Origin: Runella sp. SP2
GTDB taxonomy: Bacteria; Bacteroidota; Bacteroidia; Cytophagales; Spirosomataceae
Length of the DNA stretch: 64,000 nt
NCBI RefSeq assembly: GCF_003711225.1
Contig: NZ_CP031030.1
Span: 496,001-560,000 of the forward strand
Direction: 5' to 3'
Shown here: positions 18,036 to 28,241 of the stretch, piece by piece
How positions within the stretch are numbered: the stretch's first letter is position 1
Layout: each line of letters begins with the position of its first letter
Notes under the pieces: model-generated
What the model saw: only the letters and a program-made list of their open reading frames with translations
Database searches by the model: none
What the model was told of the DNA's origin: nothing
Position numbers and translations under genes: made by a program

Positions 18036-19709
18036 ATGAAAAAAACGCTCTACACCACAGTGCTTTTGGTGGGATTAGGCATGGTTAGTTTTGCCCAATC
18101 CAAAAAAGCGCCCAAACTTACCCCCGAACAAGCCCGTCTCGAAAAACTCAAACAAGAGGCAGTGGCTGGCGTTGAGAAACGCGCAGAATTGGGGCAGCAA
18201 ATCAACGACATGCTCTTCAGTTTTTCGGAACTTGGTTTCCAAGAATTTGAAAGTTCGCGTTATCTGACTGAATTGTTGGAAAAAAATGGTTTCACCATCG
18301 AACGCGGTATCGCCAACATGCCCACCGCGTGGCTCGCCAAATGGGGTAGTGGAAAACCCATCATCGCCATTGGCTCGGATGTGGACTGTATTCCTAAAGC
18401 GTCCCAAAAACCTGGAGTAGCCTACCAAGACCCCATCGTGACGGGTGCACCTGGCCACGGCGAAGGACACAACTCGGGACAAGCCCTCAATATCATTTCG
18501 GCGTTGGCGGTCAAAGACATCATGGAGCGCGAAAAAATCCCAGGTACGTTGGTGTTGTGGCCAGGCGTAGCCGAAGAATTGGTAGGAGCGAAGGCATTTT
18601 ATGTGCGTGATGGTTATTTCAAAGACGTAGATGCTTGTATTTTTACGCACGTAGCCAATAATTTAGGCGTCTCTTACGGTGATGCAGGAAACAACGGACT
18701 TGTCTCGGTTCGCTTCAACTTTGAAGGGGCTGCCGCCCATGCCGCAGGTGCGCCTTGGCGTGGCCGAAGTGCCTTGGATGCGGTCGAATTGATGAACGTT
18801 GGCTGGAATTTCCGTCGTGAGCACTTGGAAGTAACACAACGCTCGCATTATGTCATCCCCGATGGTGGCGATCAGCCAAATGTTGTCCCCTCTAAAGCGG
18901 CGGTTTGGTATTATTTTCGCGAGCGCTCTTATCCTAAAATCAAAAAACTGTTTGACATCGGCGTGAAAATCGCGGAAGGGGCGGCTTTGATGACCGATAC
19001 CAAATTTACCTACGAAATTTTGGGGTCGGCTTGGCCTGGGCACTTCAACAAGCCTATTGCGGAAGCGATGTACCAAAACATCAAAAAAGTAGGGCTGCCT
19101 ACGTGGTCAGAAGAAGACCAAATGCTGGCAAAAGCTTCTCAAAAAGAATTGCAAGCACCGAAAATTTCGGGCTTGGCTACAAAATTGGATACGTTAGGTT
19201 TACCTGCTGATTCGCCTACGCGGATGATGGGCGGACAGGCCATGTCGATTGGAGGTGGCTCCGACGACATTGCGGATATTTCTTGGTCATTGCCAACGAT
19301 TGTGCTGCGTTATCCTTCCAATATTCCAGGCTTGCCAGGCCACCATTGGTCGAATGCCATTTCGATGGCGACGCCTATCGCGCACAAAGGCGTGGTATAT
19401 GGCGCAAAAGCGGAGGCGATGACGCTGATAGACATGCTGTTGAAGCCAGAAATTATCAAAGAAGCTTGGGAGTATTACCGTAACGAGCAAACCAAAGAGC
19501 AGAAGTACGAACCGCTTATTTCGCCCAAAGAAGTTCCTGCGGTGTACCTGAATCGCAACATCATGGAGAAGTTCAAGCCTGAGTTGTCGAAGTATTATTA
19601 TGACCCCACAAAATACAAAACGTATTTGGAGCAATTGGGTATCAAATACCCGACACTACGCGATGATCAGAAGGAAGATTTGAAAAAAATGAAAGAAAGT
19701 GAAAAATAA
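18036..19709 (+). CDS. M20 family amidohydrolase (AbgB-like), exported
   Basis: A 557-residue peptidase M20/amidohydrolase, similar in plan to aminobenzoyl-glutamate utilisation protein B. I chose the ATG at 18036 over a TTG at 18003 because it gives a clean signal peptide (MKKTLYTTVLLVGLGMVSFAQ). Catalytic-core segments are IAIGSDVDCIP, GHGEGHNSGQALN (metal His), WPGVAEELVGAK (catalytic Glu and metal Glu) and the dimerisation-domain FEGAAAHAAGAPWRGRSALDAV. The C-terminal GGGSDDIADISW and PGHHWSN carry the remaining ligand. It should hydrolyse an amide-linked amino acid conjugate in the periplasm. A strong terminator follows at 19831. Confidence 0.9.
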   Translation: MKKTLYTTVLLVGLGMVSFAQSKKAPKLTPEQARLEKLKQEAVAGVEKRAELGQQINDMLFSFSELGFQEFESSRYLTELLEKNGFTIERGIANMPTAWLAKWGSGKPIIAIGSDVDCIPKASQKPGVAYQDPIVTGAPGHGEGHNSGQALNIISALAVKDIMEREKIPGTLVLWPGVAEELVGAKAFYVRDGYFKDVDACIFTHVANNLGVSYGDAGNNGLVSVRFNFEGAAAHAAGAPWRGRSALDAVELMNVGWNFRREHLEVTQRSHYVIPDGGDQPNVVPSKAAVWYYFRERSYPKIKKLFDIGVKIAEGAALMTDTKFTYEILGSAWPGHFNKPIAEAMYQNIKKVGLPTWSEEDQMLAKASQKELQAPKISGLATKLDTLGLPADSPTRMMGGQAMSIGGGSDDIADISWSLPTIVLRYPSNIPGLPGHHWSNAISMATPIAHKGVVYGAKAEAMTLIDMLLKPEIIKEAWEYYRNEQTKEQKYEPLISPKEVPAVYLNRNIMEKFKPELSKYYYDPTKYKTYLEQLGIKYPTLRDDQKEDLKKMKESEK

Positions 19710-19830
19710 TTGAAAGCGATTCCAACCTTTTCCTCAGTAGGTGCGTCTTTAGGGTGGTAGCTACCTATTAACGCTGACATTCCCGTTTGAATATAAAGAC
19801 ATCTATTGGGGTAAACAATAGAAATTAGTG

Positions 19831-19864
19831 AAAAAGAGCGTGACCCATGGCCACGCTCTTTTTA
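19831..19864 (+). terminator. Rho-independent terminator after the M20 gene
   Basis: A perfect 12-bp stem, AAAAAGAGCGTG (19831-19842) with CACGCTCTTTTT (19852-19863), encloses a 9-base loop and ends in a T-run. It lies about 120 bases past the M20 stop codon and would also work in the opposite direction. Confidence 0.88.
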
Positions 19865-20310
19865 TGGGGGTCTTGCCCTAAAGGTTGAAAATTTTTCTTA
19901 TTTTACACTATTTCTTAATGTATCTTCCCTAAGTTTTTTGAAATAAACAAGAGAGAACTATTGGAGACACTCGTTGGTATTTTTATGTTTCTATTTACCA
20001 CAGCGTACTGGTGTGTCAATAGTGCAGTGGTATGCTCTTTATGCTCTTTCATGGTTTTACTTTGTGAACTGTATCACTTTTGTTACTTCTTTTTCAGTCC
20101 TTAGGCTGGTAAACTAATAGCTGTATTCGGTGATTGGGCCAATGTATTCGTACATATGGGGGGGGCATGGTAAAGATACCAAATTGTAACTACTTCTTTC
20201 CAAAAACTAAGAACAAAAAGTAACAAGTTTATTTTCTTTCTACCGAACAATGCCTGACAATGTAGTGTATTTACTGTGTATATTTCGCCCAAAATCTTAA
20301 AAAATATTGT
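19865..20310. other. AT-rich intergenic stretch ahead of the accessory island
   Basis: About 450 AT-rich bases with no gene I can support. No TTG-N20-TAnnTTTG match is obvious before the MFS gene at 20311, so its promoter is not identified. This gap is the left boundary of the accessory island; no direct repeats, tRNA or insertion-sequence ends are visible in it. Confidence 0.4.
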
Positions 20311-21537
20311 ATGAAAAAATTATTTTCCAAACCAGAATGGTTACTCGTGATAGTAACCTCACTGGGCTATTTTTGCGACGTATATGACATCTTGCTGTTT
20401 TCGGCAGTTAGAAAAGCATCGCTAATTGCTATCGGTGTTCCCGAAACGGAACTTGCAAATGTTGGACTTTCGCTTTTAAACTGGCAACTTGCGGGTATGC
20501 TTGTAGGAGGTCTATTTTGGGGTGTTTTTGCTGATAAACGAGGGCGTATGGTGGTTTTATTTGGCTCAATTATAGCTTATTCGGTGGCTACTTTTGCCAA
20601 TGCCTTTGTTTCATCGGTAGGAATGTATGCTGTGATGAGGTTTGTGGCAGGCGTAGGTTTGGCTGGTGAGTTAGGAGTGGGCGTTACTCTCATCAGTGAG
20701 GTTTTAGAAAAACATAAACGCTCTTATGGTGTAGCAATATTGGCCTCTTTCGGAATGTTAGGAGGAGTTGTAGCTGCTTTGGTAGCCTCAAAAATGACTT
20801 GGCAAACTTCTTACATGGTGGGTGGTGTCATGGGGCTTGCTTTGCTATTGTTTAGAGTATCAGTAGCCGATAGTGAAATGTTCAAAAAAGTGTATGCGTC
20901 TTCGATAGGAAAAGGAAACATTCTGCAACTTTTGGGTAATAAAAGCCTTTTGGTCAAATATATCCTGTGTGTTTTGGTAGGGGCACCCACTTATGTATTT
21001 GCAGGAACTTTTATTACCTTAGCACCAGAATTTGGCACAAAATTAGGGCTTTCTGAGCCACCTTCGGCGGCTACGGCTCTGCTCTATTTTTATGTTTGCT
21101 TGACCATTTTTGATGGTATTAGTGGCTTGTTGAGTAAGAAACTTCAAAGCAGAAAAAAGACACTTTATATCTTTTTGGCGCTTCAAATCTTTGCTGTTAT
21201 TGCTTACTTATTCATTCCATTTGAAACTGCCAATGGTTTTTATATTAGATGCGGACTTATTGGGGCTGCTATGGGCTATTGGACAATCGTTTGTGTTAAT
21301 GCTGCCGAACAGTTTGGTATTAACCTTAGAGCAACAGTAGCCACAAGCGTTCCAAACTTTGCGAGAGGCTTACAGATTCCTTTTTCGTTTTTATACAAAA
21401 GTTTAGCAGTTTCACTCGGTATCATAAAGGCAGGGGCTTTTGTTAGTATTGCTTCTGTGTTAGTGGCACTTGTTGCCGTTTTTTTGTTGAAAGAAAGATT
21501 TGAGAACGATTTAGACTTTGTAGAAAACGAAAATTAA
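20311..21537 (+). CDS. MFS transporter
   Basis: A 408-residue major facilitator superfamily transporter with about 12 membrane helices. The loop 2-3 signature is clear in GLFWGVFADKRGRMVVLFG, and the second half has a matching charged loop (LLSKKLQSRKKTLYIF). It most resembles the metabolite:H+ symporter branch; direction and substrate are unknown. Six bases separate it from the next gene, so it heads a tight three-gene operon. Its place beside putative redox enzymes suggests export or uptake of the pathway's small molecule. The sequence is AT-richer than the core genes to the left. Confidence 0.9.
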   Translation: MKKLFSKPEWLLVIVTSLGYFCDVYDILLFSAVRKASLIAIGVPETELANVGLSLLNWQLAGMLVGGLFWGVFADKRGRMVVLFGSIIAYSVATFANAFVSSVGMYAVMRFVAGVGLAGELGVGVTLISEVLEKHKRSYGVAILASFGMLGGVVAALVASKMTWQTSYMVGGVMGLALLLFRVSVADSEMFKKVYASSIGKGNILQLLGNKSLLVKYILCVLVGAPTYVFAGTFITLAPEFGTKLGLSEPPSAATALLYFYVCLTIFDGISGLLSKKLQSRKKTLYIFLALQIFAVIAYLFIPFETANGFYIRCGLIGAAMGYWTIVCVNAAEQFGINLRATVATSVPNFARGLQIPFSFLYKSLAVSLGIIKAGAFVSIASVLVALVAVFLLKERFENDLDFVENEN

Positions 21538-21543
21538 GAAAAC

Positions 21544-22296
21544 ATGGACAGTAATATTCACAGTCAAATCGAGCATTTGATAAATAACGAATACAATAAG
21601 CACCCATTTACGGCAGGAATAGACAAAGCGAATGTAGAGGGTGTTTTAGCCGAATACTTGGGTTTATGCCTTTGTGCCCCTTATATTATTGGTGGGTCAA
21701 GCAACGAATTATTTTTGAATTGCGTTTTCTCTGGGCGACCGATAGACCGAAAAATTGAAATTACTACTGCGGTTGCTGCATTTCTTTCATTTGATGAAAC
21801 TGGGAATTACAACAAAGTGATTGCTGGCGGTCACGAAGCTCTACTTTCTTTGTTGGATACTTCTGATTTTCATTCAAATATGTTGAGACGTGATTTGAAA
21901 CTTCTTTTTGGCAAAGACATTTCACCGACACATAATTCGTATCTCAAATACTATTTCGTGCAATTATCAAAGGGATTATCCAACATAGACGATGTCCAAC
22001 GCTGTGCTGCATTGGTAGCCTTAGAGGTTCATTCCGAAATCATGATTTTGTCACTTTGGGATAGTGTTATGCAAGTTTTCCCCGAAATAGAACGCAATAA
22101 ATTAGAATACTTTTATTTGCACGTTGGCGGTGACAATCCTGCTGAAAAGTACCATGTGGCCATGACCGAACAAATGATAAACGAAGTGGTTGGCCAAGAT
22201 AATTTAGTGACCTTCTTTACTCATTTTAAATTTTATTATGAAATGAATACAAAGCTATGTAGAGATATTTTAGACAATAACGCTTTTAAAACATAA
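21544..22296 (+). CDS. Candidate haem-oxygenase-fold (diiron oxidase-like) protein
   Basis: A 250-residue, all-helical, soluble protein. I read it tentatively as a member of the haem-oxygenase-like superfamily (iron-containing redox enzymes, HDO/PqqC/TenA relatives). Supporting residues are ALEVHSE (Glu161, His163) in one helix and YLHVGGDNPAEKYH in a later helix (His193, Asp197, Glu201, His204), a pattern reminiscent of the H-x3-D-x2-H ligand helix but with an insertion. The first E-x6-H helix is not obvious, so the metal site and activity are unproven. It sits between the MFS gene (6-base gap) and an unknown gene (3-base gap). HDO enzymes perform N-oxygenation, C-C cleavage and desaturation in natural product pathways. 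Confidence 0.45.
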   Translation: MDSNIHSQIEHLINNEYNKHPFTAGIDKANVEGVLAEYLGLCLCAPYIIGGSSNELFLNCVFSGRPIDRKIEITTAVAAFLSFDETGNYNKVIAGGHEALLSLLDTSDFHSNMLRRDLKLLFGKDISPTHNSYLKYYFVQLSKGLSNIDDVQRCAALVALEVHSEIMILSLWDSVMQVFPEIERNKLEYFYLHVGGDNPAEKYHVAMTEQMINEVVGQDNLVTFFTHFKFYYEMNTKLCRDILDNNAFKT

Positions 22297-22299
22297 GCT

Positions 22300-23748
22300 A
22301 TGTTAGTATCAACAGCTACTCGTATAAGTCTACAAGAAGTTCAAAAACGGTATATTCAAAAATATGCTATTGGAGATTTTTTAGCACATGAAGAAAGCTA
22401 TATTTCCGAAGGTTTTGCTCTTCTATTTGATGATTTACAACAATATTTCGGTAATGACTTGTTGATGTTTGATGCCTATTATTTGGCTGAAAATGGCAAT
22501 ATCAATAGTGTTCACCCACTGTTAAAAAAGGTAAATCAACGCTATAACAATTTATCCAACAAATTCTGCTTAGACTATTCCCAAATTTTTGAAGAAGTAA
22601 AAGCAAAAGCCAATCAATATCCGAATAGCCTTTTGAGTATTTCGGAAAAGCTAATCATTGAAAATAGGAAAACTGGTTTTTGTTTCTTTAAAACCATTGA
22701 TTCAAACTCTGTCTATATTCAACCAATAGACTGTCTATTTGTTAATCTCAATAATTTTCAATCTATTACAGCACGCAGAGGTGGACAAATTGACGTTAAT
22801 CAACTTTATGTCCAAGTCAATGAACTTACAGGATTGGTTGATTTTGACAATGCAGTATCGGCTCTCAATGTCGAAACTGACGAAAGGGATGGCTTCGCCC
22901 GTACTTTCGATTTGTACGACAGCCTTCTTCAAAACCATGGTAGGGCCTTTGTATATTTTATTCGTCCCAGAGTGGCTCATGGTGAATACAATGGTACATT
23001 GACCCTTTTTCTATCAAGACAACTCATCGAAGATGAGTTCAACATCATTTCATCGTTTATCAACGATATTTTGTGTGAAACCACCATTGCCCGAGCTATC
23101 CACAAAACAAAAACAGAAATGGCGGAGGAGCATGATATTTTATATTGGGGGACTGATAAACCGAAAAGCGATAACCAATGCAAAAAAAAACGAAGAGATC
23201 AACTTGTCAACATGTTGAAAGATAAGGAAAATGATATATCATTTACTGATCAAATTTATAATGAAGTGCAACAAGCCGTTGAAGCCTTTTTAACTTTTTT
23301 TAAGAATCCCAATGAAATGTGTCTTGCAACATCTGTCCAATTCCATGAATGGATAGAATGCAATAGCGTTTGTATGGAATTGTCTGCCGTTCGAGGTGTT
23401 GAAAATCGATTTCGAGATACACTCATCATTCGTAGGACAATATTGTGTCTTTGTCAATTACGAAATAATAACAAAATCATTTATCACGAAGACATGAGGT
23501 TTGTCAAAAACGTAATGCCTCGGTATGTTTTGGATGTCTTCAAAAACAAGGTATTTTCAAAAGATTACACAATAAAACATAAATCTGATGCAGATACGCC
23601 AAATTATAGAAAGAACTTAGCCTCTTTGGGTTTACACTCTGTCAATTCAACTTCTTTATTAGATATAAGTGTAAATCCGCCTTATGTGTCTCTGAAGGAA
23701 AAAAACTGGCTTTGGGAACAAAAAATAACAAAGTTGAACAGCCTGTAA
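22300..23748 (+). CDS. Unknown protein, third gene of the MFS operon
   Basis: A 482-residue protein that I cannot assign. It has no signal peptide or membrane helix and is rich in Asn, Phe and Ile. Visible segments are GRAFVYFIRPRVAHGEYNG at about residues 220-240 with several aromatic and Arg residues, a helical stretch with many acidic residues and histidines (AIHKTKTEMAEEHD), and a Cys-containing helix (RRTILCLCQLR). No nucleotide-binding, zinc or radical SAM motif is present. It starts 3 bases after the preceding stop and is followed by a perfect 22-bp terminator hairpin, so it ends the first transcription unit of the island. It may be a biosynthetic enzyme of a new family. Confidence 0.7.
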   Translation: MLVSTATRISLQEVQKRYIQKYAIGDFLAHEESYISEGFALLFDDLQQYFGNDLLMFDAYYLAENGNINSVHPLLKKVNQRYNNLSNKFCLDYSQIFEEVKAKANQYPNSLLSISEKLIIENRKTGFCFFKTIDSNSVYIQPIDCLFVNLNNFQSITARRGGQIDVNQLYVQVNELTGLVDFDNAVSALNVETDERDGFARTFDLYDSLLQNHGRAFVYFIRPRVAHGEYNGTLTLFLSRQLIEDEFNIISSFINDILCETTIARAIHKTKTEMAEEHDILYWGTDKPKSDNQCKKKRRDQLVNMLKDKENDISFTDQIYNEVQQAVEAFLTFFKNPNEMCLATSVQFHEWIECNSVCMELSAVRGVENRFRDTLIIRRTILCLCQLRNNNKIIYHEDMRFVKNVMPRYVLDVFKNKVFSKDYTIKHKSDADTPNYRKNLASLGLHSVNSTSLLDISVNPPYVSLKEKNWLWEQKITKLNSL

Positions 23749-23828
23749 CAAGGTCGAACAGCTTGTAACAAAATAGGTACTAAAAGGAACAAGTATTTAT
23801 CTGCATCGAAAGCAAGCAATTGAGAGTG

Positions 23829-23875
23829 AAATCAGGGCATAAAATATTGAATATCAATATTTTATGCCCTGATTT
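23829..23875 (+). terminator. Perfect 22-bp hairpin terminator
   Basis: Bases 23829-23850 are exactly complementary to 23854-23875, leaving a 3-base loop (ATA). The downstream flank is AT-rich rather than a clean T-run. It separates the MFS unit from the second unit of the island and sits 80 bases past the last stop. Confidence 0.8.
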
Positions 23876-23921
23876 ATTATAAAAAAATAAAAATTTTACG
23901 AGAATATGACGGTTGTCATTG

Positions 23922-23952
23922 TTGTTAAATGTTTGGTTTTAGGGTAAATTTG
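23922..23952 (+). promoter_or_regulatory. Strong Bacteroidota-type promoter of the second island unit
   Basis: TTG (23922-23924), 20 bases, then TAAATTTG (23945-23952) matches the consensus in both elements and spacing. The predicted start site is near 23959, giving an unusually long 5' leader of about 237 bases before the ATG at 24196. Confidence 0.75.
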
Positions 23953-23958
23953 TACTGC

Positions 23959-24195
23959 CTTAAAAAGCAAAGAACCCCACAAGTGTTCGCCGAATCTTTG
24001 AATACGAGTTTCTCAGGCCAGTATCAAAGTTTTGCCAAGTGAACTACGGTGCGAGGCTCTTTTGTGTCCCGTGAGCATTGCTTTTTGGAACATCGCAAAG
24101 ATAACGAGCGTACGGCGTTATTCTTACAATTGCTTCTAAAAAAATCTCACGGGGCTAAGGCATAGTTTATTTTTTTCACTTAAAAAAAATAATTC
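23959..24195 (+). ncRNA. Long structured 5' leader or small RNA
   Basis: No open frame of note lies in this stretch. CCCGTGAG (24068-24075) is perfectly complementary to CTCACGGG (24146-24153), closing a domain of about 86 bases that contains a further hairpin, ATAACG (24101-24106) with CGTTAT (24116-24121). A purine- and T-rich segment then leads to the ATG. It could be a cis-regulatory leader for the PrnB-like/Rieske/B3-B4 genes or a separate small RNA. No known riboswitch class is recognised. Confidence 0.4.
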
Positions 24196-25425
24196 ATGTC
24201 GTACCCATTACAAAATGATGACGGTGGCTATTATGCTATCTCTCAATCGCAAAACAACTTTGACGAGTATATAGTAAGGCTCAAATGCCTACTGCCTGTC
24301 AATGCCCACGTACCATGTTTTATTAAAAAGGGTCATGGTGTTAATCTGCCTGTGTTGCAATTCAGGATTCAAGATTTTCTATATCTATCCAGCGAGGTTA
24401 TCCAAGAACTCGAAAATACAACCACTTGGGCATCTGACACGAATAAGCAACTCAGAAAAGTAGCACATTCTCTGTTCCAAATTCGGGCAGAACTAAATTG
24501 TATCGATTTAGCTAAACTTAATGTGGTTAAAAATCAAAATGAAAGGTATCAACATTACAACGAGTATTTTGGTGTAACCGAAACTAATGAAATGGACACG
24601 CTTGAATTAGCCCAAGTTGATGCCATGATTACTTACTGTATGTTACTCGAATTTCAGAATATAAACATTGATGAATTCGAGGTGAGCAACTTTCTGAGAG
24701 GAGTAATTTTACGTTGGGAAGTTATTGCATCAGTAATTACAGGTATTGGAGCCAATGCAACAGATTCAAATTCAAACGAGTTGCCGCATTACATCGACAC
24801 CTCATTGAACGACCCAATCGTTAATGACTGCCGTATTACGACCTGTTTCTTCCGTTGGATGATTTCGCATTACGATTTCGCACTCAATGCCATGTATGCT
24901 ACCATGTTTAGCAAGCAAGCAAAACAGGAATTAGAAGACCAAAACTACCATGAAGCTGCCATGACAATATCAAAGATTGGTGTTGCAGTTAGAGCAACCA
25001 CCGTATCTATGGTGTTGGGATCTATGATGCCTAAGGCAGTTTATCAGAACTATATTCGTCCTTCGATGGGTGTAGGGTTTACTGGAAAAGATAACTTGTG
25101 GTGGTCGGCATTTATGAATGCAAAGAGAGAGTTGCTTGCTTGTGCGTCTATAAACAAGTCGGGCATTGTTAAAAAGTCGCTTGTCAATTTACAAGAGATT
25201 TTATTGCAAGACATTGAGCTTCATACGTGGGTGGCTGCAAAATTGGTAGGGAATAAAACATCTTTAACCATTGACGAGATAAATGAATTTTGTGATGAAC
25301 AAGACAAAAGTGAAAGATTTGCCACTGCTGACCTTCGGACGTTATTTTTTCTGAGAGTCAAGGAGTTCGATTTTTTAAGTTATTATCCCATTGTTAATCA
25401 ATTATTTAAAGCCGATTCAAAATGA
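24196..25425 (+). CDS. Unknown protein, possibly PrnB-like (DUF1864)
   Basis: A 409-residue soluble, mostly helical protein. The segment from about residue 220 to 350, with VRATTVSMVLGSMMP (Arg266) leading to YIRPSM (288-291), then a helix WWSAFMNAKRELL and ELHTWVAAKLVG (His343), reminds me of the PrnB/DUF1864 family. PrnB rearranges the indole ring in pyrrolnitrin biosynthesis and has the fold of the haem-dependent indole dioxygenases. His225 or His343 could be a haem ligand, but neither can be confirmed by eye. The match is from memory only. Its stop overlaps the Rieske gene by 4 bases (ATGA), so the two are co-translated. Confidence 0.4.
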   Translation: MSYPLQNDDGGYYAISQSQNNFDEYIVRLKCLLPVNAHVPCFIKKGHGVNLPVLQFRIQDFLYLSSEVIQELENTTTWASDTNKQLRKVAHSLFQIRAELNCIDLAKLNVVKNQNERYQHYNEYFGVTETNEMDTLELAQVDAMITYCMLLEFQNINIDEFEVSNFLRGVILRWEVIASVITGIGANATDSNSNELPHYIDTSLNDPIVNDCRITTCFFRWMISHYDFALNAMYATMFSKQAKQELEDQNYHEAAMTISKIGVAVRATTVSMVLGSMMPKAVYQNYIRPSMGVGFTGKDNLWWSAFMNAKRELLACASINKSGIVKKSLVNLQEILLQDIELHTWVAAKLVGNKTSLTIDEINEFCDEQDKSERFATADLRTLFFLRVKEFDFLSYYPIVNQLFKADSK

Positions 25426-25736
25426 AAACGATATTTATTGCTTCTGCCGAATTGGTAAAGGAGGCGAAGGTATATTTCAAAGGAGAAGTGGTTGTAAGGT
25501 GGGTTAAAGACAAGTTCATTGCCCACCAACGATTCTGCCCCCATCAAAATGCAGATTTAAACGCTGCCTTAGTTAGTGATGATTTAAGGCTACAATGTCC
25601 CATGCACCCAATTAAGTTTTGCATGGAAAGCGGTAAAAGTAATGTGCAGAAATGGGCAATTAAAGTTTACGAGACCCTTGTAGAAAACAATCAACTATTC
25701 ATCAAAATTAATGATAATGAGACAATTGTCGTATAA
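25422..25736 (+). CDS. Rieske [2Fe-2S] ferredoxin-like protein
   Basis: A 104-residue Rieske protein. The cluster ligands are clear: C39-P-H41, 17 residues, then C59-P-M-H62 (CPHQNADLN ... LQCPMHPIKF). The length corresponds to a stand-alone Rieske ferredoxin, without the catalytic iron domain of a Rieske oxygenase, so its role should be electron transfer to a partner oxygenase. Its gene overlaps the upstream 409-residue gene by 4 bases and the downstream B3/B4 gene by 26 bases. That coupling makes the upstream protein, or the diiron oxidase-like protein of the first unit, the likely recipient of electrons. Confidence 0.9.
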   Translation: MKTIFIASAELVKEAKVYFKGEVVVRWVKDKFIAHQRFCPHQNADLNAALVSDDLRLQCPMHPIKFCMESGKSNVQKWAIKVYETLVENNQLFIKINDNETIVV

Positions 25737-26421
25737 AATAGAGCCTTCGATTTTGTTGCAACACCCCGATTTCAGTAGGGGTGTTGTAACCTGTCGAAAT
25801 GTTGATAATACAGGCTTATCAACCATAAACTTTTCGGAACTTAACACGAAACTGACTGCCAATATCGAAAATTTGGCAGAATCAAAACCTGTGAAATCGT
25901 GGCGAGCAGTATTTAGACAAATGGGTATTGACCCTACGAAAGACAGAGTTTCATTTGAGGCTCTTACTCGCCGAATACTTAATAATGGCACACTCAAAAC
26001 CATCAACCCAATCGTTGATTTGGGTAACTATTTCAGTATTTTGTTTCAAATGCCTATTGGTGTGCATCCAATCAAGAATGAGGTTACAAATGTTATTCTG
26101 AAAAAAGCGACAGGTCAAGAGTTGTATATGGGATTTGGTAGTGATTATTACGAGAAAGTACAACCCAATGAAATTATTTTGGTAGATAACGATACTGTTT
26201 TGACAAGGCGATTCTGTTGGCGGCAATCAAAACAATCTGTTATAGAAATATCCGACCAAAGTATGTTTGTCAATTTTGATTTTATAGAAAAACCAGAGGA
26301 TGAACAAGTGCAATTGTGTATGAATGAGTTTATGAATGCCATTAAAGTTTTTTCGCCAAATGCCATTTTCGATTCATTTGTCTTAAAGTCTGATAATCAA
26401 AAACATGAACTGTGTTTTTAG
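25711..26421 (+). CDS. B3/B4 tRNA-binding domain protein
   Basis: A 236-residue stand-alone B3/B4 domain protein (COG3382-like), the fold of the PheRS beta-subunit editing domain. Recognisable segments are WRAVFRQMGIDPTKDRVSFEAL (from residue 64), which matches the family's R-x-MG-x-DP-x-K-x-R-S-x-E-AL pattern, the RRIL segment and NPIVDLGNYFSILFQMPIG. Such free-standing domains can bind or deacylate aminoacyl-tRNAs, and some are linked to peptide or amino acid metabolism. Translation begins inside the Rieske gene (26-base overlap; a second in-frame ATG is at 25717). A tRNA-linked step in the pathway, or self-protection, is speculation. Confidence 0.85.
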   Translation: MIMRQLSYKIEPSILLQHPDFSRGVVTCRNVDNTGLSTINFSELNTKLTANIENLAESKPVKSWRAVFRQMGIDPTKDRVSFEALTRRILNNGTLKTINPIVDLGNYFSILFQMPIGVHPIKNEVTNVILKKATGQELYMGFGSDYYEKVQPNEIILVDNDTVLTRRFCWRQSKQSVIEISDQSMFVNFDFIEKPEDEQVQLCMNEFMNAIKVFSPNAIFDSFVLKSDNQKHELCF

Positions 26422-26568
26422 TTATCTCGTTACTATTTGCCATCAACCAAGGAATAGATATATGCTCTGGAATTACCAACTCCATTAATGAAATGGTAAA
26501 ACGTATTCAAACAATTATCCCTAATCTAACTATGCCAATCAAAAACAACTCCCCGCCCCCTCAACAAA

Positions 26569-26612
26569 AAAGCCCTGCTCGACCGTCTGGACAACATACG
26601 AACAAGGGCTTT
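26569..26612. terminator. Possible terminator hairpin after the B3/B4 gene
   Basis: AAAGCCCT (26569-26576) pairs with AGGGCTTT (26605-26612), an 8-bp stem around a 28-base loop. An A-run on the left gives a U-run on the minus strand. It lies about 150 bases past the B3/B4 stop. The gap 26422-26683 otherwise holds nothing I can support. Confidence 0.4.
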
Positions 26613-26683
26613 GCCTCCGCAGTACCGCAATGGCTATCAAAGGTAGTCATTGCAATTTGTCAAATCAAAAAAACAAACATACA

Positions 26684-27277
26684 ATGACTTACAAATTTTT
26701 TAAAATCATGGTTGTAGCTTCCTTATTGGTCGCTCCTATGGCTTGTCAAAAAGAAAACGAGGCCGTAACGCCTCAAACACCGCCAGTAGTTCACTCTGCC
26801 GAATGAACTGGGGCAACAACTTACGCCAAAAATATTAAAAATGCGTACAAATACGACGCTAAAGATGTTTTTATGGGTAATACAAGTTGGGCGCCTTATG
26901 CTGTTTTTACAAAACCATCCGAAATCGAATTAAAATACAATTCAGAAAAACAGCGTGAGGTCACAGCTTCAGTGTCATCTTCTATCTGCACAAAAGCAGA
27001 AATAGAAGTCTTGATGTCGAATGTCTGTATTGAAGCCAAAAACACTTTGAAAGAGTCTATGGCGCAAATTGCAACAGTAACTCGTAAAGAAAAATTGGCT
27101 GCTTATCAACAGGCTCGTTTGGCTATCTATGCTCGCTACGAATACTTTACTGGAACATTGGTAGTAGTTCCCTTCAATGGGAATGGGCCAGGGAGCATTG
27201 CACCTATGGAATATCGAGTATATTGGAAGATACCAAAATATACTTATGTTAAGGTGGAGAAACGAACAGTGAAGTAA
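26684..27277 (+). pseudogene. Lipoprotein gene interrupted by an in-frame TGA
   Basis: The frame starts with ATG at 26684 and encodes a signal sequence with a lipoprotein-like cysteine (VVASLLVAPMAC-QKEN). It meets TGA at 26804-26806 (codon 41) and then continues in the same frame without another stop to 27277. The downstream part (TGATTYAKNIKNAYKYDAKD, then the segment from ATG 26873) reads like mature protein, so the complete product would be about 197 residues, with Trp as the simplest ancestral residue at the stop. I cannot name the family; no catalytic motif is seen. The remaining downstream ATG at 26873 would make a 134-residue fragment without a signal. A terminator hairpin follows at 27300. 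Confidence 0.75.
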
Positions 27278-27299
27278 AACCGCTATTTCCTGTATCTAT

Positions 27300-27338
27300 A
27301 AACAGCCGTCCCGTCATTTGAGGCGGCTGTTTGTTTTA
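27300..27338 (+). terminator. Terminator hairpin
   Basis: AAACAGCCG (27300-27308) pairs with CGGCTGTTT (27324-27332) and is followed by a T-rich tail. It lies 22 bases after the broken lipoprotein gene and can also serve the convergent cvfB gene. Confidence 0.8.
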
Positions 27339-27395
27339 ATTTGCGTCTTACAACACCTTCGCCTGTCCAACAAGTGCATAGTTTAAGTAAAATTA

Positions 27396-28241
27396 CTAAG
27401 AAGCTACGCCGTGAATCCCATCTTCCTTGATGCTGATTTTTCCTTCTTTCAGCAACCCACCGATGGCCTTCTTGAAGTCTTTTTTAGACATTCCAAAGGT
27501 GCGATAAATCGCCGCAGGGTCTGATTTGTCGTTGAAAGGAAGAAACCCATTAGCGGCTTGAAGTTGCTGATAAACGTCTGATTTACTGCCTTCTATGCGG
27601 TTGTACGATTGCTCAACCAACGCCAAGTCTATTTTTTGGTCTTCTCTTATTTTTTTGATAAATCCACTAATTGTTTTGCCCAGTTCGATGTTTTTGAATA
27701 CTTCATCGCGGTACAATACCCCCAAATACCGCTGATTGATAAGGGCTTTGATACCCATGTCGGTGTATTCGTAAGGTAAAATATCGACTTGCATCCCTTC
27801 CGAAAGTTCCGAAATATCTTCCTCCAAAAAGCGCTCAATTTTAGCCGAACCCACAATACGATCGGTTTTGGTATCGAGGTGGATAAAAATCAAAAAGCTT
27901 TTACCCACGAGCATATTATCACGTTGTTGTTTGAACGGAATAAAAAGGTCTTTAGGAAGTCCCCAATCCATAAAAACACCCAAGGAAGTGACCATCGTGA
28001 CCGTCAAATACACAAACTCGCCCACCGTTCCGTAGGGTTCAAGTGTGGTACCAATGGCGCGGTCTTCAGAATCACGATAGATAAAAACGTCCAAAAAATC
28101 CCCGATTTGAATGTCGGCGGGTACGTACTGTTTGGGTACTAAAATCTCATCTTCGTAGCCATCGAGATAAATCCCAAAATCCAACTGCTTAATGACTTTC
28201 AAGCGGTTGTACTGTCCCATTCTCAAACGACGATTGCTCAT
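27396..28241 (-). CDS. cvfB: CvfB-like S1 RNA-binding protein
   Basis: A 281-residue protein of the CvfB/YitL family. It carries consecutive S1-like beta-barrel domains: about 5-60 (LKVIKQLDFGIYLDGYEDEILVPKQY), about 65-140 (VYLTVTMVTSLGVFMDWG, KDLFIPFKQQR) and about 150-210. A winged-helix-like C-terminus follows, containing YRTFGMSKKDFKKAIGGLLKEGKI. Members bind RNA and influence virulence or global gene expression in Firmicutes, and the role in Bacteroidota is not established. The length is normal and the start ATG is well placed. The gene stands alone, ending against a terminator and starting next to a repeat-rich gap. Confidence 0.9.
   Translation of the reverse strand: MSNRRLRMGQYNRLKVIKQLDFGIYLDGYEDEILVPKQYVPADIQIGDFLDVFIYRDSEDRAIGTTLEPYGTVGEFVYLTVTMVTSLGVFMDWGLPKDLFIPFKQQRDNMLVGKSFLIFIHLDTKTDRIVGSAKIERFLEEDISELSEGMQVDILPYEYTDMGIKALINQRYLGVLYRDEVFKNIELGKTISGFIKKIREDQKIDLALVEQSYNRIEGSKSDVYQQLQAANGFLPFNDKSDPAAIYRTFGMSKKDFKKAIGGLLKEGKISIKEDGIHGVAS

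What the first reader, a model, noticed from the sequence alone, without database searches (positions are those of the whole stretch)
20311..26421. Possible undescribed small-molecule pathway: MFS, haem-oxygenase-fold protein, PrnB-like protein, Rieske and B3/B4 domain
Six tightly packed genes form two units. Seen: gaps of 6 and 3 bases, then overlaps of 4 and 26 bases; a clear Rieske C-x-H-x17-C-x2-H; a clear B3/B4 domain; a 12-helix MFS transporter. Tentative: haem-oxygenase-like fold for 21544-22296 and PrnB/DUF1864 likeness for 24196-25425. One gene (22300-23748) is of no known family. Redox enzymes, an electron carrier, a tRNA-editing-like domain and an exporter together resemble a natural product cluster, possibly one that modifies an amino acid such as tryptophan. 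The AT-rich composition suggests transfer.
Basis: partly seen in the sequence, partly recalled or inferred. Interest (0 to 1): 0.85.

Follow-up and report, generated by a model that had tools for sequence, protein, structure and literature searches.

The report
Acquired amino-acid modification gene island
A bacterium has picked up a compact block of genes that probably makes, or less likely breaks down, an unusual amino acid and protects the cell from building that amino acid into its own proteins.

Summary
The six genes are real and lie on a strain-specific island (about 19864-27435, 37% G+C against 45% around it). The 12 other genomes held of the genus have no match to its 409- and 250-residue proteins; three show the empty site. 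The 409-residue protein is a haem-dependent aromatic oxygenase of the tyrosine-hydroxylase/SfmD branch, not a PrnB. A profile built without it finds it as the only match in its genome (E=1.4e-8), with R-W-x3-H, Y-x4-RPSM and the proposed axial His. The 250-residue protein is probably a haem-oxygenase-fold dimetal oxidase: six candidate metal ligands, one in shifted spacing, score below Pfam's cut-off. The Rieske protein is a dioxygenase-type ferredoxin. The B3/B4 protein is a free-standing editing domain sharing a motif with probable canavanyl-tRNA deacylases (CtdA). The 482-residue protein stays an orphan. A strongly folded leader without Rfam match precedes the second operon. Most likely mechanism (inferred): the island makes a modified, probably tyrosine-derived, amino acid, and the B3/B4 protein clears tRNA mischarged with it. 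Breakdown of an imported toxic amino acid is the main rival. No other locus examined carries the gene set.

The parts
19864..27435 (.). strain-specific island inserted between an M20-type peptidase gene and a cvfB-like gene
   Evidence: Contiguous alignment of window to 19863 and from 27436 with congeners G477, G494, G520, where the matches to the two flanking genes are about 170 bp apart; G+C 37.3% against 44.6% for the rest of the window
20311..21537 (+). MFS transporter, nearest to aromatic acid:H+ symport family models
   Evidence: Pfam MFS_1 E=4e-25; TIGR00895 E=3e-24 but 85 bits against a cut-off of 418
21544..22296 (+). probable haem-oxygenase-like dimetal oxidase (HDO); candidate ligands E85, H97, E161, H193, D197, H204
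   Evidence: Haem_oxygenas_2 E=0.018, below cut-off; hhalign to 20 HDO-family proteins prob 47%, E=2e-4; best of 347 window ORFs with that profile, E=0.0014; E161, H193, D197, H204 align to near-invariant family residues
22300..23748 (+). orphan protein, 482 aa, no family
   Evidence: No credible match in Pfam, NCBIfam, PHROGs, PADLOC, PDB, plasmids, viral contigs or 199 other genomes of the family
23831..23873 (+). terminator-like hairpin after unit 1 (20 pairs, 3-nt loop)
23919..23952 (+). promoter-like TTG-N-TAAATTTG (Bacteroidota type, consensus recalled)
23956..24178 (+). structured leader or ncRNA: closed three-way junction followed by a U-run, upstream of unit 2
   Evidence: 23956-24195 folds at -69.5 kcal/mol, z=-4.37, 0 of 200 shuffles as good; 23956-24179 z=-3.41; reverse strand z=-4.18; leader of unit 1 z=+0.80 as a contrast; no Rfam match over it
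24196..25425 (+). haem-dependent aromatic oxygenase, tyrosine-hydroxylase/SfmD branch; R220-W221-x3-H225, Y283-x4-R288-P-S-M291, proposed axial H343
   Evidence: hhalign prob 92.5%, E=5e-7 over 219 columns, controls 0.14% and 0.06%; profile A3 (window protein not in it) E=1.4e-8, only match in own genome
25422..25736 (+). Rieske [2Fe-2S] ferredoxin, HcaC/NirD type
   Evidence: Pfam Rieske E=1.2e-9; HcaC model E=7e-12, below its cut-off; C-x-H-x17-C-x2-H
25711..26421 (+). free-standing B3/B4 editing-domain protein with the block RR[WF]-x-WRQ
   Evidence: Pfam B3_4 E=3e-17; alignment with 10 plasmid-borne and 3 genome-derived relatives

Best explanation
The island is a self-contained small pathway for a non-canonical amino acid. 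Step 1 (branch shown by sequence, substrate inferred): the haem enzyme oxygenates an aromatic amino acid, most likely tyrosine or a derivative, with electrons from the Rieske ferredoxin whose gene overlaps its own by 4 bases. Step 2 (family probable, reaction inferred): the dimetal oxidase carries out a further oxidation of the amino acid. Step 3 (inferred): the MFS protein moves the product across the membrane. Step 4 (domain shown, substrate inferred): the B3/B4 protein hydrolyses tRNA mischarged with the product and so protects the producer, as CtdA does for canavanyl-tRNA(Arg). The folded leader may let the cell switch on the second operon, including the protector, in response to the product or precursor (inferred). 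The role of the 482-residue protein is unknown.
For: 409-aa protein. R90-W91-x3-H95 is described as a highly conserved region in LmbB2, compared there with the distal motif of peroxidases (PMC3851162, passages). Five of the 8 aligned relatives sit in biosynthetic loci: L058, L063, L064, L066 next to annotated NRPS genes, L065 is RenD on the renieramycin plasmid; L059, L060 and L061 carry no annotation. HDO; the ligand spacing varies between HDOs (MboA: H89, H172, H181, E86, E143, D176; PMC13185094, passages). The standalone B3/4 protein CtdA deacylates canavanyl-tRNA(Arg) (PMC10018355, parts 1-4 of 6 read). Tight coupling of unit 2. Transfer as one block.
Against: No substrate was tested. The gene set was found nowhere else: 0 of 10 fetched B3/4 loci carry a haem oxygenase of this branch or an HDO by these profiles, and 0 of 8 fetched haem-oxygenase loci carry B3/4, HDO or a Rieske motif (loci of 7-20 kb). 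The nearest MFS model is an uptake family (recalled). CtdA's documented setting is catabolic. The B3/B4 protein's motif is shared with CtdA-like proteins, whose proven substrate is an arginine, not a tyrosine, analogue. The HDO assignment is below Pfam's cut-off, and in a genome search with that Pfam family the only match at E<=0.001 in the host is a different gene. There is no amino-acid ligase, PLP enzyme or ferredoxin reductase on the island. AlphaFold models were poor (mean pLDDT 40.5 and 39.2).
Confidence: 0.42

Rival explanations
1. Utilisation or detoxification island: the MFS protein imports a toxic plant or microbial amino acid or aromatic acid, the haem enzyme, Rieske protein and HDO break it down, and the B3/B4 protein protects translation meanwhile.
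For: Nearest transporter models are aromatic acid:H+ symporters. CtdA stands next to canavanine-degradation genes (PMC10018355). In 6 of 10 fetched loci a PLP-enzyme, RidA or GNAT gene lies within two genes of the B3/4 gene (L010, L011, L012, L094, L095, L097); not in L009, L013, L014, L096.
Against: The haem-enzyme branch (TyrH, SfmD, RenD) is known only from biosynthesis in the sources seen, and HDOs are described as natural-product enzymes (PMC13108848, abstract and passages). No lyase, ring-cleavage enzyme or dehydrogenase was seen on the island.
Confidence: 0.27
2. Two unrelated operons carried on one mobile block: an MFS-HDO-orphan unit and a haem oxygenase-Rieske-B3/B4 unit with separate functions.
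For: A strong terminator-like hairpin and a separate promoter-like site lie between the units; the gene set was not seen elsewhere.
Against: Both units share low G+C (34-40% per gene) and one insertion site. Neither unit alone holds both a transporter and the tRNA-editing protein.
Confidence: 0.18
3. One reading: a PrnB-like tryptophan pathway.
For: PrnB, TDO, MarE and TyrH share one superfamily (PMC11904535, PMC11791213, passages and listing); the low-confidence model also drew MarE and TDO hits.
Against: Sequence and profile matches go to the tyrosine branch; no Pfam match at E<=5; no halogenase among the island proteins scanned.
Confidence: 0.07

Closest known systems
Haem-dependent tyrosine hydroxylases and SfmD/RenD (LmbB2, TyrH 7kqr, SfmD 6vdp)
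   Same: R-W-x3-H, Y-x4-RP-x-M and proposed axial His conserved; 219-column profile match
   Different: 14-21% identity in the nine-row alignment (29-30% to the two TyrH homologues in a three-row alignment); about 135 more residues before the R-W motif than TyrH homologues; gene overlaps a Rieske ferredoxin gene, while known members were assayed with other reductants or H2O2 (LmbB2 with BH4; the rest mostly recalled)
Canavanyl-tRNA(Arg) deacylase CtdA and other standalone B3/4 proteins
   Same: B3/B4 family over the whole length; block RR[WF]-x-WRQ shared with 7 of 13 aligned relatives, among them a rhizobial one beside a PLP enzyme
   Different: 17-27% identity to the aligned relatives; in an operon with oxygenases; no Rfam guanidine riboswitch upstream, but an unclassified folded leader
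HDO enzymes (CADD/4-aminobenzoate synthase, MboA, UndA, SznF)
   Same: Three His and three carboxylate candidates in the family's order
   Different: D-x6-H instead of the D-x2-H usual in the 20 aligned proteins or the D-x4-H of MboA; family score below cut-off
Mangotoxin mbo operon
   Same: HDO with a dedicated redox partner in a small pathway that acts on amino-acid substrates
   Different: MboB is a flavin/Fe2S2 reductase, not a Rieske ferredoxin; mbo has ATP-grasp ligases, none was seen on the island
Hormaomycin cluster
   Same: Contains an LmbB2 orthologue (PMC3851162, passage); the HDO HrmI is listed in PMC13108848 (its membership of this cluster is recalled)
   Different: Large NRPS cluster; the two enzymes act on different building blocks (recalled)

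Membership tests
HDAO superfamily, tyrosine-hydroxylase/SfmD branch | Profile-level sequence match over the haem-binding core | tested here: met
   hhalign 92.5%, E=5e-7; genome-wide E=1.4e-8, only match; controls negative
HDAO superfamily, tyrosine-hydroxylase/SfmD branch | R-W-x3-H and conserved Y...RP-x-M | tested here: met
   R220 W221 H225 Y283 RPSM288-291. Two of the 8 relatives (L060, L061) were fetched by a pattern containing RPSM, so they are not independent for that block
HDAO superfamily, tyrosine-hydroxylase/SfmD branch | Axial haem histidine | tested here: met
   H343 aligns with the invariant His of all 8 relatives; that this His is the axial ligand (TyrH H196) is recalled
HDAO superfamily, tyrosine-hydroxylase/SfmD branch | Four-helix-bundle fold binding haem b | tested here: inconclusive
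   Model mean pLDDT 40.5; top Foldseek hits TyrH and MarE, then TDO, none with E<=0.001, and two of the three alignment rows were TyrH homologues
PrnB | Match to a PrnB/DUF1864 profile | tested here: not met
   No Pfam family at E<=5
HDO | Profile match to Haem_oxygenas_2 | tested here: inconclusive
   15.3 bits against a cut-off of 28.9; hhalign 47%, E=2e-4
HDO | 3 His/3 carboxylate ligand set | tested here: inconclusive
   E161, H193, D197, H204 align with residues kept in 26-27 of 27 family members; E85-x11-H97 has the family spacing but MAFFT placed that part otherwise; the step from D to the last H is 4 longer
Rieske ferredoxin | C-x-H-xn-C-x2-H and no catalytic domain | tested here: met
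   104 aa, motif present
Standalone B3/B4 editing protein | B3_4 domain without the rest of PheRS | tested here: met
   236 aa
CtdA | Deacylates canavanyl-tRNA(Arg) | not testable with these tools
   Shared motif only; no experimentally proven CtdA sequence was among the rows
Known riboswitch classes (incl. guanidine) | Rfam match at the leader | tested here: not met
   Four matches up to E=5 in 19600-27600, all below gathering scores and none over the leader

The most novel reading that the evidence does not exclude
A new kind of amino-acid antimetabolite pathway in Bacteroidota: a tyrosine-branch haem oxygenase driven by a dedicated, translationally coupled Rieske ferredoxin (the first native redox partner of this superfamily), with self-protection by a co-encoded trans-editing tRNA deacylase, and with a so far undescribed regulatory RNA in front of the operon that senses the product.
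Probability: 0.2. Interest if true: 0.85.

Novelty: new variant of a known kind. Interest (0 to 1): 0.58.

Why it matters
The source of electrons for this haem superfamily is an open point: for PrnB, several redox proteins were tried without product, and its authors thought an exclusive partner unlikely (PMC11791213, passages). A haem oxygenase gene that overlaps a Rieske ferredoxin gene makes the question testable with two purified proteins. A tRNA-editing protein encoded with the oxygenase points at the product's nature: an amino acid that a tRNA synthetase mistakes for a normal one. With the family profile, 362 of 364 other genomes of the phylum gave no match to this enzyme branch and 2 gave weak, short ones.

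Tried and rejected
DUF6014 next to B3/4 in Geminocystis was checked as a hidden relative of the 409-aa protein and rejected. Weak genome hits to the 409-aa protein (E 0.003-0.009): two of three fall in transporter-like ORFs by my reading of the sequence, no family call; the third (L002) was not examined. Weak hits to the 482-aa protein are partial, and three of four frames hold stops. The 482-aa protein's AspRS match (E=0.72) is treated as chance. The Rfam miRNA and sRNA matches are treated as chance. Viral, phage and plasmid collections gave no relatives of the genes tried there (409 aa; 482 aa; 250 aa). The leader's DNA has no match in 60 other family genomes or in plasmids. Of the three loci found by the DNA pattern, L062 held no such ORF and was dropped. 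A first HDO alignment used wrongly oriented loci and was discarded. Literature: five papers joined at least three of the terms self-resistance, tRNA deacylase, non-proteinogenic amino acid, antimetabolite; from the listing none describes such a cluster (one of them is the CtdA paper). In the 20 of 482 papers listed the term 'B3 4 domain' does not occur.
Full report
Setting. The window is C1:496001-560000 of a 7.6 Mb genome. I infer a Bacteroidota host from gene content and promoter style; no call names it.

What is there. Six ORFs stand exactly as described. Unit 1: MFS transporter, 250-aa protein, 482-aa protein. Unit 2: 409-aa protein, Rieske protein, B3/B4 protein. A 20-pair terminator-like hairpin follows unit 1 and a Bacteroidota-type promoter-like sequence precedes unit 2.

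It is an acquired island. The 12 other genomes held of the genus have no match to the 409-aa and 250-aa proteins at E<=0.01. For the 482-aa protein one of them gives a weak 69-residue match, E=0.009. In G477, G494 and G520 the two flanking genes, 97-98% (peptidase) and 91% (cvfB-like) identical to the window's, are about 170 bp apart. BLAST places the junctions at 19863 and 27436. G502 has a gap of about 380 bp. G466, G441 and G190 carry three other genes there and G486 two; G454 has a gap of about 3.0 kb that I did not annotate. In G510 and G515 the two genes lie on different contigs, and G525 (83% complete) has no close peptidase match. Island G+C is 37.3% against 44.6% for the rest of the window. 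No transposase or integrase was seen among the seven island proteins scanned.

The 409-aa protein. Direct searches found nothing in Pfam, 394 other phylum genomes, plasmids, phages or genome contigs. Three of 199 other family genomes gave weak hits that I judge chance. phmmer against the PDB gave one weak hit, haem-dependent tyrosine hydroxylase, E=0.76, with a shared F-R-W-x3-H and M-P-x2-V-Y-x3-IRPSM. I used that enzyme fragment to find relatives on plasmids (three records, two used), then widened the set with one of them (26 records, four fetched) and with a DNA pattern for the shared block (three loci, two used). Eight relatives from eight loci form alignment A3, which does not contain the window protein. 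hhalign joins the window protein to A3 with probability 92.5%, E=5e-7, 219 columns. The 482- and 250-aa proteins as controls gave 0.14% and 0.06%. A3 matches PDB chains of TyrH (E=3e-65 and 2e-62) and SfmD (E=5e-49). In 365 genomes of the phylum, the host included, A3 finds this gene with E=1.4e-8 and two weak matches elsewhere (E 0.004 and 0.009). Among 347 window ORFs it is the only significant one (E=1.8e-10, next 0.69). W221, H225, Y283, R288 and H343 are shared by all 9 sequences. Limits: two of the eight relatives were chosen by a pattern holding the RPSM block. The AlphaFold model is poor; its best Foldseek hits are TyrH and MarE, then TDO, but none reaches E<=0.001 and two TyrH homologues were in its alignment.

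The 250-aa protein. Pfam's Haem_oxygenas_2 scores below cut-off. A search of 148 genomes with that family gave 27 matches in 23 genomes; in the host the one match at E<=0.001 is another gene (L089), so the island protein did not pass that search. I aligned 20 of the 27 (A6; L072-L076, L081 and L087 left out as near-duplicates or a fragment). A6 matches a DUF3050 protein, CT610 (CADD, name recalled) and 4-aminobenzoate synthases in the PDB. Against A6 the window protein scores 47% probability, E=2e-4, while the 482-aa protein scores 0.75%; it is the best of 347 window ORFs, E=0.0014, next 0.4. E161, H193, D197 and H204 fall on columns kept in 26-27 of 27 relatives. E85 and H97 have the family's 12-residue step, though MAFFT did not place them so. 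The last His is four residues further on than is usual in A6. MboA shows that this step varies (D176 to H181). I call it a probable HDO.

The 482-aa protein has no credible relative in any collection searched. I do not assign it.

The Rieske protein is a 104-aa ferredoxin nearest to HcaC and NirD models, below their cut-offs. It is one of six Rieske matches in the genome, and its gene overlaps the haem-enzyme gene by 4 bases, so a shared function is likely but not shown.

The B3/B4 protein. Relatives are common on plasmids (187 of 72,556 records) and rare in the phylum sample (3 of 389 other genomes, E 2e-8 to 7e-5). In an alignment of 14 sequences the window protein has the block RR-F-C-WRQ; 7 of the 13 others have RR-W-N-WRQ (Geminocystis, Pantoea, Serratia and rhizobial proteins), two have part of it (L010, L014), and the four Parabacteroides-like ones have a VGTPTS block instead. 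One of the seven (L094, Mesorhizobium) lies beside a PLP enzyme and an XRE regulator; I take it as a probable CtdA by context only. CtdA is a standalone B3/4 protein that deacylates canavanyl-tRNA(Arg), is adjacent to canavanine-degradation genes and is often under guanidine riboswitches (PMC10018355).

The leader. From the promoter-like site to the start of unit 2, 23956-24195 folds with z=-4.37, 0 of 200 shuffles as good. The reverse strand scores much the same, z=-4.18, so the fold alone does not decide the strand. The leader of unit 1 shows no excess structure. Rfam gives no class. Without relatives there is no covariation test. A folded RNA in front of an operon that ends in a B3/B4 gene recalls the riboswitch control of CtdA genes, but this is an analogy.

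How it most likely works, and its rivals, are given in their sections. The biosynthetic reading rests on the haem-enzyme branch and on HDO chemistry; the catabolic rival rests on the transporter family and on the CtdA precedent. The gene set was not seen together elsewhere: across 18 fetched loci of 7-20 kb, 0 of 10 B3/4 loci hold either oxygenase by these profiles, and 0 of 8 haem-oxygenase loci hold HDO, B3/4 or a Rieske motif; the Rieske pattern matched one other ORF, an antisense frame over the B3/4 gene of L010, which I discount. This is evidence for a rare or new combination, and equally a reason for caution.

Noticed in passing
window 23956-24178 (+): Strongly folded leader or small RNA (three-way junction closed by UGCCUUA/UAAGGCA, then a U-run) without Rfam class, before the haem-oxygenase operon; possible new riboswitch or attenuator.
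   Followed up: partly
window 26684-27277 (+): A lipoprotein-like reading frame interrupted by one in-frame stop (read by eye); looks like a decaying gene at the right edge of the island.
   Followed up: no
L046, L047, L048, L050 (same-genus genomes, peptidase-cvfB gap): The same intergenic site holds other genes in other species of the genus (an amino-acid-oxidase-like gene, a RidA-like gene and, in three of the four, an MscS-like gene, named by eye), so it is a variable site.
   Followed up: partly
L064:7453-8531, L066:5390-6525, L063:7508-8549: In Agrobacterium/Allorhizobium and Gloeocapsa NRPS loci the haem-oxygenase core is a short ORF annotated 'siderophore biosynthesis protein' or 'hypothetical protein', right after another short ORF: possibly an unrecognised split haem-dependent aromatic oxygenase.
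   Followed up: partly
L009:6668-8693: A DUF6014 protein lies next to a B3/4 editing-domain protein on a Geminocystis plasmid; no detectable relation to the island's oxygenase.
   Followed up: partly
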